Under the pieces are notes generated by a model. It did not search any database. It saw nothing but the letters and a program-made list of their open reading frames with translations, and had not been told where the DNA came from. This document shows, piece after piece, positions 56,353 to 60,845 of a stretch of 64,000 nt of DNA. Source of the DNA: Fusobacterium mortiferum ATCC 9817 (lineage in GTDB: Bacteria > Fusobacteriota > Fusobacteriia > Fusobacteriales > Fusobacteriaceae); contig NZ_GL987988.1 in assembly GCF_000158195.2 (NCBI RefSeq), positions 143,371-207,370 on the forward strand, read 5' to 3'. The translations under genes and the position numbers were made by a program. The first letter of the stretch is position 1. Every line of letters starts with the position of its first letter.

Positions 56353-57687
56353 TTATTTATTTTTCTTTCTATCTAGCCTATTGATTATTTTGTCATTGAT
56401 TGAAAGAGCTATGAAAACTAGTGTAAAGATGAATAATAATCCTTGATACCAAAGTAGAGGTATAACATCTAATGGTGATACAGCTCCTGCTGTAAATCCT
56501 AAAAGGATTAGCATTTGAGCCCCGTAAGGGATAAGTCCTTGGAATATACAAGAGAAGATATCTAGTATAGCAGCACTTTCTCTTAAATCAACATCATATT
56601 TTTCACAGATTTTTTTAGCTATAGAACCATTTATAATGATAGCAACTGTATTGTTAGCAACTGCCATATCAGTTACAGCAACTAGGAATCCAACTCCAAC
56701 TTTAGCTGTTTTAGGACCGATTATAAATTTTTGAATTTGTTCAATAAGCCATTGAACACCACCAGCTTTAGTAGTCATAGTAGCAAGTCCACCAGTAAGT
56801 AAAGATAATAAGAAAATTTCATTCATTCCCATAAATCCATTGTATATCTCTTTCGAAAATGTTAAGAAAGTAAAATCTCCATATATAAAACCTATAACTC
56901 CTGATAAGATTATTCCAGATGTCAATACTACGAAAACATTTATACCTACAATAGCTAATACAAGAACAGCTATATAAGGAAGAACTTTTAAGAAATTATA
57001 TGAAAGAACTTCTACATCAGGAATACTTTCTGGACGTCCAAAAAGCAAAAGTAATATAACAGTTACTATAGCAGCAGGAGCAGCGATGTATAAGTTAACT
57101 CTAAATTTATCTCTCATCTCTACTCCTTGAGTTTTTGTAGCAGCAATAGTAGTATCTGAAATAACAGAAAGATTATCTCCAAACATAGAACCACCCATAA
57201 CTGCTGCTAATATAAGAGGCATAGGTACTCCACTTTTTTCAGCAAGTCCAACGGCAATAGGAGTAATAGCTACAATAGAACCTACAGAAGCACCAGTAGC
57301 AGTTGAGATAAAAGCAGCTATTATAAATAAACCAGCAGCTATATAATGAGCTGGAATATAAGTAAGTCCGAAATTAACAGTTGCATCTACTCCACCCATA
57401 GCTTTTGAAACAGTGGCAAAAGCTCCAGCTAAAAGATAGATTATACACATAGTAATAATGTCTTGATGACCGCAACCTTCAAGGAAACTATTAAATTTTT
57501 CATTTATAGTCCCTTTAAACATAATAAAGGCAACTATTATTCCTACAAAGATAGCAACTGGAGAAGGAAGCTGATAGAAAGCCATCTCTACTCCTTGAGA
57601 TTGTAAAAATATTCCTGTTCCTAAATAGATGATAACAAAGATTAACAGAGGTATTAAACCAGTAAAACTAGATTTTTTATTTTCCAT
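56353..57687 (-). CDS. NhaC-family antiporter/transporter, possibly a methionine importer
   Basis: The 444-residue membrane protein has about eleven to twelve helices. NhaC motifs include FISTATGASVGSIVAITPIAV, AAVMGGSMFGDNLSVISDTT near residue 164 and MAVANNTVAIIINGSIA near 339. The family covers Na+/H+ antiporters and the MetT methionine transporters known from comparative genomics. Its divergent pairing with methionine gamma-lyase, through a symmetric control region, favours methionine or a related amino acid as substrate. That reading is inference. AGGAGG precedes the ATG. Confidence 0.85.
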   Translation of the reverse strand: MENKKSSFTGLIPLLIFVIIYLGTGIFLQSQGVEMAFYQLPSPVAIFVGIIVAFIMFKGTINEKFNSFLEGCGHQDIITMCIIYLLAGAFATVSKAMGGVDATVNFGLTYIPAHYIAAGLFIIAAFISTATGASVGSIVAITPIAVGLAEKSGVPMPLILAAVMGGSMFGDNLSVISDTTIAATKTQGVEMRDKFRVNLYIAAPAAIVTVILLLLFGRPESIPDVEVLSYNFLKVLPYIAVLVLAIVGINVFVVLTSGIILSGVIGFIYGDFTFLTFSKEIYNGFMGMNEIFLLSLLTGGLATMTTKAGGVQWLIEQIQKFIIGPKTAKVGVGFLVAVTDMAVANNTVAIIINGSIAKKICEKYDVDLRESAAILDIFSCIFQGLIPYGAQMLILLGFTAGAVSPLDVIPLLWYQGLLFIFTLVFIALSINDKIINRLDRKKNK

Positions 57688-57733: not shown

Positions 57734-57840
57734 AAGTGTAATTTATTTATACAAAAAAATCAAGTATAGTATTATTTTTAGTGTCTTAAGACACTTTGTT
57801 TCTAAGAGTGTTGACTTTGCAAAAAAAATAAATTACACTT
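57734..57840. promoter_or_regulatory. Mirror-symmetric divergent promoter region (nhaC / methionine gamma-lyase)
   Basis: AAGTGTAATTTATTT (57734-57748) is repeated perfectly inverted at 57826-57840. Between them lies the 16-base palindrome AGTGTCTTAAGACACT (57780-57795), with nearly the same centre. Rightward promoter: TTGACT 57811-57816, 17 bases, TACACT 57834-57839. Leftward promoter: TTGATT (complement of 57758-57763), 17 bases, TACACT (complement of 57735-57740). The boxes are exact mirror positions. A single regulator at the palindrome could control both genes. Confidence 0.7.
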
Positions 57841-57896: not shown

Positions 57897-59078
57897 ATGA
57901 AAAAAGGTATAGGAACTATGAGTATTCATACAGGGAATCATAAAAATCCATTTGGAGCTTTAGCAGTACCAATTTATCAAACTTCAACATTTGTATTTGA
58001 TTCAGCTGAGCAAGGTGGAAAGAGATTCGCACTAGAAGAGGAAGGATATATTTATTCAAGATTAGGAAACCCTACAACTGCAGTATTTGAAGAGAAAATA
58101 GCAGCACTAGAGGGAGGAGAAGCAGCAGTTGCAACATCTTCAGGAATAGGAGCTATTACTTCTACTTTATGGACACTTTTAAAAGCTGGGGACCATGTAA
58201 TAGCAGATAAAACTCTATATGGATGTACATTTGCTTACTTAAACCATGGTGTAGCAAAATTTGGTGTAGAGGTTGACTTTATAGATACTTCTGATTTAGA
58301 GCTAGTAAGAAAAACTATGAAATCTAATACAAGAGTAGTATATTTAGAGACTCCTGCTAACCCTAATATGAAAGTGGTAGATATTAAAGCAGTGGCAGAA
58401 ATAGCACATACTAATCCAAATACTTTAGTAGTAGTAGATAATACATTTGCTACTCCATTCTGCCAAAGACCATTAGAACTTGGTTGTGATGTGGTTGTTC
58501 ACTCAGTAACTAAATATTTAAATGGGCATGGGGATGTAATAGCAGGGGTAGTTATAAGTAAAAAAGAGATAATAGACCAAGTAAGACTTGTAGGTGTAAA
58601 AGATATGACTGGTTCTGTACTAGGACCTACTGAAGCTTTCTATATAATAAGAGGTATGAAAACTTTTGAACTAAGAATGAGAAGACACTGTGAAAACGCT
58701 ATGAAAGTAGCTGAATATTTAGAGGCTCATGACAAGATTGAAAAAGTTTATTATCCAGGATTAAAATCTCATGATGGATATGAAGTAGCATCTAAGCAAA
58801 TGGATGCATTTGGTGGAATACTAGCTTTTGAATTAAAAGGTGGATTTGAAGCTGGTAAAACATTACTTAATAATGTAAAAATGGCAGCTTTAGCAGTATC
58901 TTTAGGAGATGCTGAAACTCTTATTCAACATCCTGCTTCTATGACTCACTCTCCATATACTAAAGAGGAAAGATTAGCAGCTGGAATTACAGATGGTCTT
59001 GTAAGATTATCAGTAGGACTTGAAAATATAGAGGATATAATAGCAGACTTAGAATATGGATTAGCTCAAATAAAATAA
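57897..59078 (+). CDS. megL: L-methionine gamma-lyase
   Basis: The 393-residue PLP enzyme of the Cys/Met metabolism family has SRLGNPTT near residue 60 and the gamma-lyase-specific Cys in TLYGCTFAY (Cys110). SVTKYLNGHGD near 206 holds the PLP Lys, and SLGDAETLIQHPASMTHS is present. The sequence looks very like the Fusobacterium nucleatum enzyme from memory. It splits methionine to methanethiol, ammonia and 2-oxobutyrate. GGGAGG precedes the ATG. It is divergent from the NhaC gene and followed by a terminator and a MocR regulator. Confidence 0.93.
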   Translation: MKKGIGTMSIHTGNHKNPFGALAVPIYQTSTFVFDSAEQGGKRFALEEEGYIYSRLGNPTTAVFEEKIAALEGGEAAVATSSGIGAITSTLWTLLKAGDHVIADKTLYGCTFAYLNHGVAKFGVEVDFIDTSDLELVRKTMKSNTRVVYLETPANPNMKVVDIKAVAEIAHTNPNTLVVVDNTFATPFCQRPLELGCDVVVHSVTKYLNGHGDVIAGVVISKKEIIDQVRLVGVKDMTGSVLGPTEAFYIIRGMKTFELRMRRHCENAMKVAEYLEAHDKIEKVYYPGLKSHDGYEVASKQMDAFGGILAFELKGGFEAGKTLLNNVKMAALAVSLGDAETLIQHPASMTHSPYTKEERLAAGITDGLVRLSVGLENIEDIIADLEYGLAQIK

Positions 59079-59134
59079 GAAAAAATTAAAATAAATATTT
59101 CTTATTCCATAGTGTCCCTTATAAGAAAAAACCA

Positions 59135-59172
59135 AAAGCCAAGAGTGATGAAAGTCATTCTTGGCTTTTATA
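59135..59172 (+). terminator. Terminator after methionine gamma-lyase gene
   Basis: AAAAGCCAAGAGTGA pairs with TCATTCTTGGCTTTT around a short loop; the 3' side ends in T-rich sequence. Confidence 0.85.
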
Positions 59173-59258
59173 ATATACATTTCTTTCTCTTTATCTTCTA
59201 AAAAAAATGTTATATAATTTAAATAGGGGGATATTAAAATTAAAAAAGAGGAAAAAAT

Positions 59259-60650
59259 ATGGAAAAGAAAGTAGGAAGTTATCTAGAATTATATGATATT
59301 TTGAAAAGTGAAATAATTTTAAAAAAGATGAAAGTGAATTCAAAATTTCCATCAATAAGGCAGATAAGTGGTAAGTATGGTTGTAATAGTAATACAGTAT
59401 TGAGAGTATATAAGCTTTTAGAAGAAAATGGGTATATTTATTCTATCAAGGGAAAAGGTTCTTTTGTGAAAGCTAACTATGATATCTCTATTGATGAAAA
59501 GGTTTTTCCTTTGATTGAAAATTTTCGTTATGGTCAAAATGTAAAAAAATATTCAATAAATTTTTCTAATGGGACTCCATCTAAAAATCTATTTCCTGTG
59601 GATAGTTATAGAAAATATATAGAAAGAGCCTTCAATGAAAAGGGAAGTTACCTTTTAGGTTATCAAGATGTCCAAGGATTAGAGAGTTTAAGGGAGGCTA
59701 TAGCTGAGTATATAGAAAAATATGATATTTTTGTAAACTCAGATGATATATTTATAACATCAGGAACTCAGCAATCGCTAGCTGTTATAATGAAAGCTTT
59801 TGGATACTCTCCTAAAAAAACTGTGGTAATATCTGATCCAAGTTATCCAAATGCTTTAAATTTTTTAGAGGATATGTGTAACGTTAGAACTATGGATTTA
59901 CAAAAAGATGGTTGGGATATGTCAGAGTTTAAAGAGTTGTTACAAAAAGAGAAGGTTGATTTTGTATATGAAACTTTTAATTTTCAAAATCCTACTGGTG
60001 TAATCTGGAGTGAAAAAAAGAAAAAAGAGTTATTAGAATTGGCTAAAGATTATCATTTTTATATAATTGAAGATGATTGCTTTGCTGATTTTTCTTACAA
60101 GGACAGAGTTTCATCTTTGAAGAGTATGGATAGAGTAGGAGAGGAGAGAGTAATCTATTTAAAAACTTCTTCTAAGGTATTGATGCCAGGAATAAATAGT
60201 GCTTTTGTAATTCCACCTAAAAAATTTATGGATAAATTTATAATAGCTAAATATGGATTAGATCCTAATACCTCTGGATTAAATCAAAAGGTATTGGAAT
60301 ATTTTATAAAAGAAAAAGAGTTAGATAGACATATAAGAGAGATAAAGGGAATTTTAAAAGAGCAATTAAAAGTGATGTTAGAAGAGTTAAAAAAAATTCC
60401 TGATATTGAAGTTATGAATATTCCTAAGGGTGGTTTTTTTCTTTGGGTAAAACTGCCAGAACACATAGATGGAGAGTATTTTTATTATAAATGTAAGATG
60501 AATGGAGTATCTATTCTACCAGGAACTATCTTCTATAACAATAAAAAAGAGTGTAATAAAATTAGATTGAGCTTTTTAACTAATAATAAGGAGGAGATAG
60601 TAAAAGGTGTAGAGATAATGAAAAAAATAATTATTGACAAAATGGAATAA
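59259..60650 (+). CDS. MocR-type regulator (GntR helix-turn-helix fused to aminotransferase fold)
   Basis: The 463-residue protein has an N-terminal GntR winged helix (SIRQISGKYGCNSNTVLRVY, near residues 28-47; IKGKGSFVKA). A class I aminotransferase-like domain follows, with SGTQQSLAVIMKAF, NPTGVIWSE and the PLP-lysine motif TSSKVLMPG near residue 305. MocR proteins use PLP to sense amino acids or amines and control nearby genes. It may regulate the methionine gamma-lyase/NhaC pair upstream. The promoter for the riboflavin operon overlaps its 3' end. Confidence 0.9.
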   Translation: MEKKVGSYLELYDILKSEIILKKMKVNSKFPSIRQISGKYGCNSNTVLRVYKLLEENGYIYSIKGKGSFVKANYDISIDEKVFPLIENFRYGQNVKKYSINFSNGTPSKNLFPVDSYRKYIERAFNEKGSYLLGYQDVQGLESLREAIAEYIEKYDIFVNSDDIFITSGTQQSLAVIMKAFGYSPKKTVVISDPSYPNALNFLEDMCNVRTMDLQKDGWDMSEFKELLQKEKVDFVYETFNFQNPTGVIWSEKKKKELLELAKDYHFYIIEDDCFADFSYKDRVSSLKSMDRVGEERVIYLKTSSKVLMPGINSAFVIPPKKFMDKFIIAKYGLDPNTSGLNQKVLEYFIKEKELDRHIREIKGILKEQLKVMLEELKKIPDIEVMNIPKGGFFLWVKLPEHIDGEYFYYKCKMNGVSILPGTIFYNNKKECNKIRLSFLTNNKEEIVKGVEIMKKIIIDKME

Positions 60651-60662: not shown

Positions 60663-60688
60663 TAATTTATAGAGAATAAAAATATTTA

Positions 60689-60808
60689 TCTTCAGGGCAG
60701 GGTGAGTGAAAACAATTCCCGACCGGTGGTTATAGTCCACGAGAGTTTGTAAAAACTCTGATTTGGTGAAATTCCAAAACCGACAGTAAAGTCTGGATGG
60801 AAGAAGAA
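60689..60808 (+). ncRNA. FMN riboswitch (RFN element)
   Basis: The conserved blocks of the RFN element are present in order: TCTTCAGGGCAGGGTG near 60689-60704, AATTCCCGACCGG near 60715, GGTTATAGTCCACGAG, TTTGGTGAAATTCC near 60771, and ACCGACAGTAAAGTCTGGAT, ending GGAAGAAG. Together they form the six-way junction that binds FMN. It lies 92 bases before ribH and is followed by a terminator, so FMN should end transcription early. Confidence 0.97.
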
Positions 60809-60845
60809 AAGATATCTGCAAAGAAATCTTATACTTTTTTTATAT

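What the first reader, a model, noticed from the sequence alone, without database searches (positions are those of the whole stretch)
57734..57840. Mirror-symmetric divergent control region between nhaC and methionine gamma-lyase
A perfect 15-bp inverted repeat flanks a perfect 16-bp palindrome with almost the same centre. The two promoters have their -35 and -10 boxes at exact mirror positions with 17-bp spacers and identical TACACT -10s. One regulator dimer or tetramer bound centrally would control both genes equally. Such full symmetry is rare.
Basis: seen in the sequence. Interest (0 to 1): 0.6.

Follow-up and report, generated by a model that had tools for sequence, protein, structure and literature searches.

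The report
MocR operator between methionine genes
The mirror-like DNA stretch is real: its central palindrome is very probably the landing site of a vitamin-B6-dependent (MocR) regulator that controls methionine breakdown throughout this bacterial family, while the mirror-image second promoter is a local rearrangement seen only in this genome.

Summary
AGTGTCTTAAGACACT (57780-57795) lies between two promoters whose -35 and -10 boxes mirror each other about 57787, with perfect 15-bp arms. The combination is unique in the window and never arose in simulations, although 16-bp palindromes alone are common. In Fusobacteriaceae relatives the palindrome, or a variant, stands upstream of megL, usually between a divergent mocR and megL-metT, typically exactly 15 bp before the -35. 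Its variants follow the MocR tree rather than the genus, and it is absent upstream of metT in relatives lacking megL and this mocR. It is therefore most likely the operator of the MocR regulator encoded at 59259 and belongs to megL. The 'nhaC' gene is a MetT-type methionine transporter. Its promoter is older: a relative without megL, this mocR or palindrome has the same TACACT box. In this genome metT replaced mocR on the operator's other face, and the megL core promoter matches metT's rather than its orthologues', as if copied. Control is not fully equal: the metT side is 16 bp away and lacks the conserved TT flank. Activation of megL/metT and ancestral autorepression of mocR are inferred. 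New regulon of a known kind; moderate interest.

The parts
57780..57795 (.). 16-bp palindromic operator AGTGTCTTAAGACACT (inferred MocR binding site)
   Evidence: unique in genome; conserved upstream of megL in relatives
57811..57816 (+). megL -35 box TTGACT, 15 bp from the operator
   Evidence: spacing conserved
57834..57839 (+). megL -10 box TACACT (17-bp spacer); differs from relatives (TAAAAT/TAGAAT/TACAAT)
57758..57763 (-). metT (nhaC) -35 box TTGATT, 16 bp from the operator
57735..57740 (-). metT (nhaC) -10 box TACACT (17-bp spacer), conserved in G001, which lacks megL and this mocR
57734..57748 (.). left arm of the perfect 15-bp inverted repeat (AAGTGTAATTTATTT)
57826..57840 (.). right arm of the perfect 15-bp inverted repeat (AAATAAATTACACTT); probably copied from the metT side
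56353..57687 (-). metT-like methionine transporter of the NhaC family (444 aa)
   Evidence: Pfam Na_H_antiporter, far below the NhaC equivalog cut-off; adjacent to megL in relatives
57897..59078 (+). megL, methionine gamma-lyase (393 aa)
   Evidence: TIGR01328 above cut-off; closest solved structures are L-methionine gamma-lyases
59134..59169 (+). strong hairpin, likely terminator, between megL and mocR
   Evidence: -22.5 kcal/mol, z -8.2
59259..60650 (+). mocR, GntR-type DNA-binding domain plus aminotransferase-like domain, inferred regulator

Best explanation
The palindrome is the operator of a methionine-catabolism regulator of the MocR (GntR/aminotransferase) family, encoded at 59259-60650. 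A PLP-bound MocR dimer binds the two AGTGT/ACACT half-sites, one helical turn apart, centred about 59 bp upstream of the expected megL start, and recruits RNA polymerase to the weak TTGACT/TACACT promoter when methionine or a related amino acid reacts with the PLP. In most relatives the same site lies in the mocR leader, so the regulator would also repress itself there. In this genome mocR lies downstream of megL with its own promoter and a terminator between, and the older metT promoter lies on the operator's other face, so one site now probably serves enzyme and transporter. The perfect 15-bp arms most likely arose when metT's -10 region was copied into the megL promoter by template switching between inverted repeats. 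Shown by sequence: anatomy, conservation, spacing, co-variation with MocR, homology of the metT promoter to one without megL. Inferred: binding, activation, ligand, autorepression, copying mechanism.
For: Exact or near-exact operator once per genome and at megL in G000 and G007-G010. Operator variants beside mocR and megL in G004, G026, G027, G036, G037, G012, G051, G050, G052. A pattern search with operator plus spacing gave 69 hits against 17 for the reversed control in 61 genomes. It independently found megL promoters with no adjacent mocR in G015, G016, G017, G019, G020 and G022, and metT promoters in G012 and G034. Gap to -35 is 15 bp in 18 of 24 sites, 14-17 in the rest. G004 is in the window's genus but has a divergent MocR (48%) and operator ACTGTACTATGACAGT; G051 is in another genus but has a close MocR (63%) and the window's operator type. 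Relatives without megL and without a close MocR (G001, G002, G003, G006, G011) have no operator at metT. The operator lies 13-50 bp from the mocR start in divergent genomes. megL core promoter: G007 and G051 agree at 28/29 positions, the window only at 18-19; metT core: window and G001 agree at 23/29.
Against: No binding or expression data. Activation rests on position and weak -10 boxes. Characterised MocR proteins often prefer direct repeats; a third direct box near the -35 could not be shown. In G015 and similar genomes the megL operator is not next to a MocR, and the nearest MocR homologue there sits beside a transporter-like gene without the motif. In G009 mocR is broken but the operator is kept. 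The window genome has three more MocR paralogues, one with a similar site (G000 C2:805088). In F. nucleatum megL responds to the ModSR two-component system (PMC9600241), so other regulators may act. The exact place of the window MocR in the tree is unresolved.
Confidence: 0.72

Rival explanations
1. The palindrome is the operator of a different regulator (ModR or a MocR paralogue), and the gene at 59259 is only a neighbour.
For: ModR represses and ModS is needed for megL in F. nucleatum (PMC9600241). Three further MocR paralogues exist in this genome, one with the similar site AGTGTTATACAACACT. Some megL operators in relatives have no adjacent mocR.
Against: Operator variants follow the adjacent MocR, also across genera; the operator sits in the leader of that mocR in most genomes.
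Confidence: 0.15
2. The mirrored arms are functional: the AGTGT/ACACT of the -10 boxes are extra regulator half-sites 44-45 bp from the central ones, giving a looped repressor complex that shuts both promoters.
For: The arms contain the same pentamer as the palindrome and are perfectly identical.
Against: G001 metT has TACACT with no close MocR, no megL and no palindrome; the -10 boxes of megL in relatives lack ACACT; the arms are absent from every relative examined.
Confidence: 0.08
3. The palindrome is an RNA element or terminator hairpin rather than a protein site.
For: The pattern scan lists it as terminator-like on the plus strand.
Against: It lies upstream of both promoters, so neither gene's transcript should contain it; the RNA prefers another weak fold (z -1.7); no Rfam match there.
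Confidence: 0.03

Closest known systems
MocR-family regulons (PdxR, GabR, TauR, EutR and others; Suvorova and Rodionov 2016, PMC5320631)
   Same: Regulator architecture, regulator gene next to a PLP-enzyme target, TGT-containing boxes about one helical turn apart; motifs of two inverted boxes make up about 20% of the regulons there.
   Different: The main text of that paper does not mention methionine, NhaC or Fusobacteria; here the target is methionine gamma-lyase and MetT, and one site lies between two mirrored promoters.
F. nucleatum megL-metT operon (PMC9600241)
   Same: Methionine gamma-lyase and MetT as one functional unit; a promoter in front of megL with mapped start sites at -32/-34.
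   Different: There the two genes are cotranscribed; here they are divergent, each with its own promoter. A GntR-type regulator is not mentioned for that operon.
GabR of Bacillus subtilis (activates gabTD, represses gabR; from general knowledge)
   Same: One site region shared by a regulator gene and a PLP-enzyme gene, as in the relatives of the window; similar dual action expected.
   Different: GabR is described with direct repeats (PMC5320631); the window regulator is far below the GabR model cut-off (188 against 600 bits).
Template-switch homogenisation of imperfect inverted repeats (PMC8604942, PMC7202029)
   Same: Makes the arms of an imperfect inverted repeat identical over short tracts.
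   Different: Here inferred from one genome only; no second strain was available.

Membership tests
MocR-family regulator and operator | Regulator with N-terminal GntR winged helix and C-terminal fold-type I aminotransferase domain with the PLP lysine | tested here: met
   Pfam GntR and Aminotran_1_2 above cut-off; matches GabR 4n0b and 7pq9 over both domains; S305-K306 invariant in 12 homologues
MocR-family regulator and operator | Site near the regulator gene and its target | tested here: met
   Between mocR and megL (or metT) in most genomes with a close MocR beside megL; in the window mocR lies downstream of megL
MocR-family regulator and operator | Two to four boxes with a TGT/TGG core at helical-turn spacing | tested here: met
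   AGTGT and ACACT with centres 11 bp apart; TGT and ACA are the most conserved columns. A third direct box was inconclusive
MocR-family regulator and operator | DNA binding and regulation shown | not testable with these tools
   needs gel shift or footprint and a deletion strain
PdxR (PLP biosynthesis regulator) | Match to the curated PdxR model | tested here: not met
   NF052282: 314.7 bits, cut-off 320; a near miss
PdxR (PLP biosynthesis regulator) | Controls pdxST or other vitamin B6 genes | tested here: inconclusive
   The exact operator occurs once in the genome, at megL/metT; weaker sites elsewhere were not followed and pdx genes were not searched
GabR | Match to the curated GabR model | tested here: not met
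   NF052285: 188 bits, cut-off 600
NhaC Na+/H+ antiporter | Match to the curated NhaC equivalog model | tested here: not met
   TIGR00931: 90.6 bits, cut-off 370; context points to MetT

The most novel reading that the evidence does not exclude
A MocR regulator dedicated to methionine catabolism (megL plus metT), conserved across Fusobacteriaceae, in which one genome has turned the shared operator into a mirror-symmetric two-promoter switch by copying the transporter's -10 region into the enzyme's promoter.
Probability: 0.5. Interest if true: 0.42.

Novelty: new member of a known kind. Interest (0 to 1): 0.32.

Why it matters
Methionine gamma-lyase is a major in vivo hydrogen sulfide producer in Fusobacterium nucleatum and matters for its fitness and virulence (PMC9600241), yet no dedicated regulator came up in the papers searched. 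A named regulator, an operator and a spacing rule make its control directly testable. The window is also a readable case of a control region being rebuilt while the operator stays.

Tried and rejected
Looked for a wider MocR regulon in the window genome: the loose 16-mer pattern gives 5 sites, no more than its reversed control (6), so only the megL/metT site and the site at a mocR paralogue stand out. Extra half-sites in the -10 boxes: rejected through G001. Terminator or RNA element: rejected by position and fold. Inverted duplication of a whole promoter region around the palindrome: rejected, since mirror identity is 28/45 inside the promoters but 13/45 outside in the same register, and the inner 15-16 bp do not match. 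megL beside MocR outside Fusobacteriaceae: none among the 80 best MocR loci within the fetched flanks of at most 4.5 kb. No paper in the library ties MocR to methionine gamma-lyase.

Full report
The observation. The palindrome alone is unremarkable for such AT-rich DNA: six of that size occur in the window and 1-5 in simulated windows. A palindrome with a long perfect arm pair on the same axis is not chance: once in the window, never in twelve simulations. The 15-mer arm and the 16-mer palindrome have no other exact copy in the 2.67-Mb genome.

The genes. The left gene resembles NhaC but scores 90.6 bits against an NhaC cut-off of 370. Its orthologues stand directly downstream of megL in relatives. 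In Fusobacterium nucleatum the gene behind megL is metT, a methionine transporter gene cotranscribed with megL (PMC9600241), and MetT belongs to the NhaC family in other bacteria (PMC3228920 and PMC2940859). That this protein carries methionine is inferred from these facts. The right gene is methionine gamma-lyase. The gene at 59259 is a MocR regulator with both domains and an invariant Ser-Lys pair at the PLP lysine position.

The operator in relatives. G-numbers are unnamed held genomes; G001-G011 share the window's genus, G012-G060 its family. G026 corresponds to F. gastrosuis, judged by its contig and match position. In G007-G010 the order is mocR <- operator -> megL -> metT and the palindrome reads AGTGTCATAAGACACT. 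In G004, G026, G027, G036 and G037 it reads A(C/G)TGTACTATGACAGT, again between mocR and megL, and in G004 also in front of a second megL. In G034 a degenerate site lies between mocR and metT. In 24 aligned sites the TGT and ACA columns are nearly invariant, and the site is followed by TT; 15 bp separate it from the -35 in 18 sites, 14-17 bp in the others. Some of these sites were found with a pattern that required 14-16 bp, but the sites found only through mocR adjacency show the same 15 bp, with G050 (16) and G052 (17) as exceptions. Some -35 boxes (G012, G026) are weak and were read by position.

An independent test. A search of 61 genomes for the operator followed by TTG at 14-16 bp gave 69 hits against 17 for the reversed pattern. 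It recovered megL promoters that do not have mocR beside them (G015, G016, G017, G019, G020, G022), metT promoters in G012 and G034, and sites in front of MocR paralogues or of tyrosine phenol-lyase-like and AlaX-like genes.

Who binds it. The operator variant follows the MocR protein. G004 belongs to the window's genus and its MegL is about as close as those of G007-G010 (77% against 78-79%), but its MocR is only 48% identical and its operator is of the other type. G051 belongs to another genus, but its MocR is 63% identical and its operator is AGTGTCTTACGACACT. The tree separates the second type (five rows, support 100/100) and joins G051 with the G007/G008/G010 MocRs (98/98); the exact position of the window's MocR is unresolved. 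Genomes of the genus without megL and without a close MocR (G001, G002, G003, G006, G011) show no operator in front of metT. In divergent genomes the operator lies 13-50 bp from the mocR start codon, where a bound protein would hinder mocR transcription. From the megL side it lies upstream of the -35, a place usual for activators. The dual role is inference.

The mirror. In G001 metT lies beside the riboflavin operon, as here, but without megL and mocR between. Its promoter, TTGCTT-17-TACACT, agrees with the window's metT promoter in 23 of 29 positions, TACACT included. The megL core of G007 and G051 agrees in 28 of 29 positions across genera, but the window's megL core agrees with them in only 18-19 and with the window's metT core in 22. 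The simplest reading is that metT's promoter is the older one and that the window's megL promoter was overwritten by a copy of part of it, as template switching between imperfect inverted repeats does (PMC8604942, PMC7202029, abstracts). One genome cannot prove the direction. The claim of equal control is weakened by the 16-bp gap and the missing TT on the metT side, though 16 bp also occurs at some sites in relatives.

In the window mocR has a TATAAT box at 59213-59218 and is separated from megL by a strong hairpin (59134-59169), so the autoregulation proposed for the relatives is probably lost here.

Verdict. A true and non-random feature, correctly located. The functional core is the operator of an apparently undescribed MocR regulon for methionine breakdown, ordinary in kind. 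The symmetry looks like a lineage-specific by-product rather than a designed switch.

Noticed in passing
window 60684-60812 (+): FMN riboswitch in front of the riboflavin operon; in G001 and G011 metT lies beside the riboflavin operon without megL and mocR.
   Followed up: partly
L189 5238-10678 (G000 C7): Second cluster in the same genome: a MocR paralogue divergent from a PatB-type C-S lyase, a MetT paralogue and a second megL.
   Followed up: partly
L196 3128-7603; L224 around 1501: MocR paralogues beside tyrosine phenol-lyase in relatives; L224 has the same operator class, which suggests that fusobacterial MocRs control several PLP-dependent lyases.
   Followed up: partly
L213 720-1451 (G009): mocR broken by several stops in G009 although its operator is intact; may be real decay or assembly error.
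   Followed up: no
L228 1501-2395 (G000 C2:805088): Operator-like AGTGTTATACAACACT between a MocR paralogue and an AlaX-like gene; the same arrangement in G029 and G031.
   Followed up: no
L185 near 6000 (G005 C1:225029): A short stretch similar to the MegL C-terminus with a stop near the riboflavin operon, perhaps a megL remnant.
   Followed up: no
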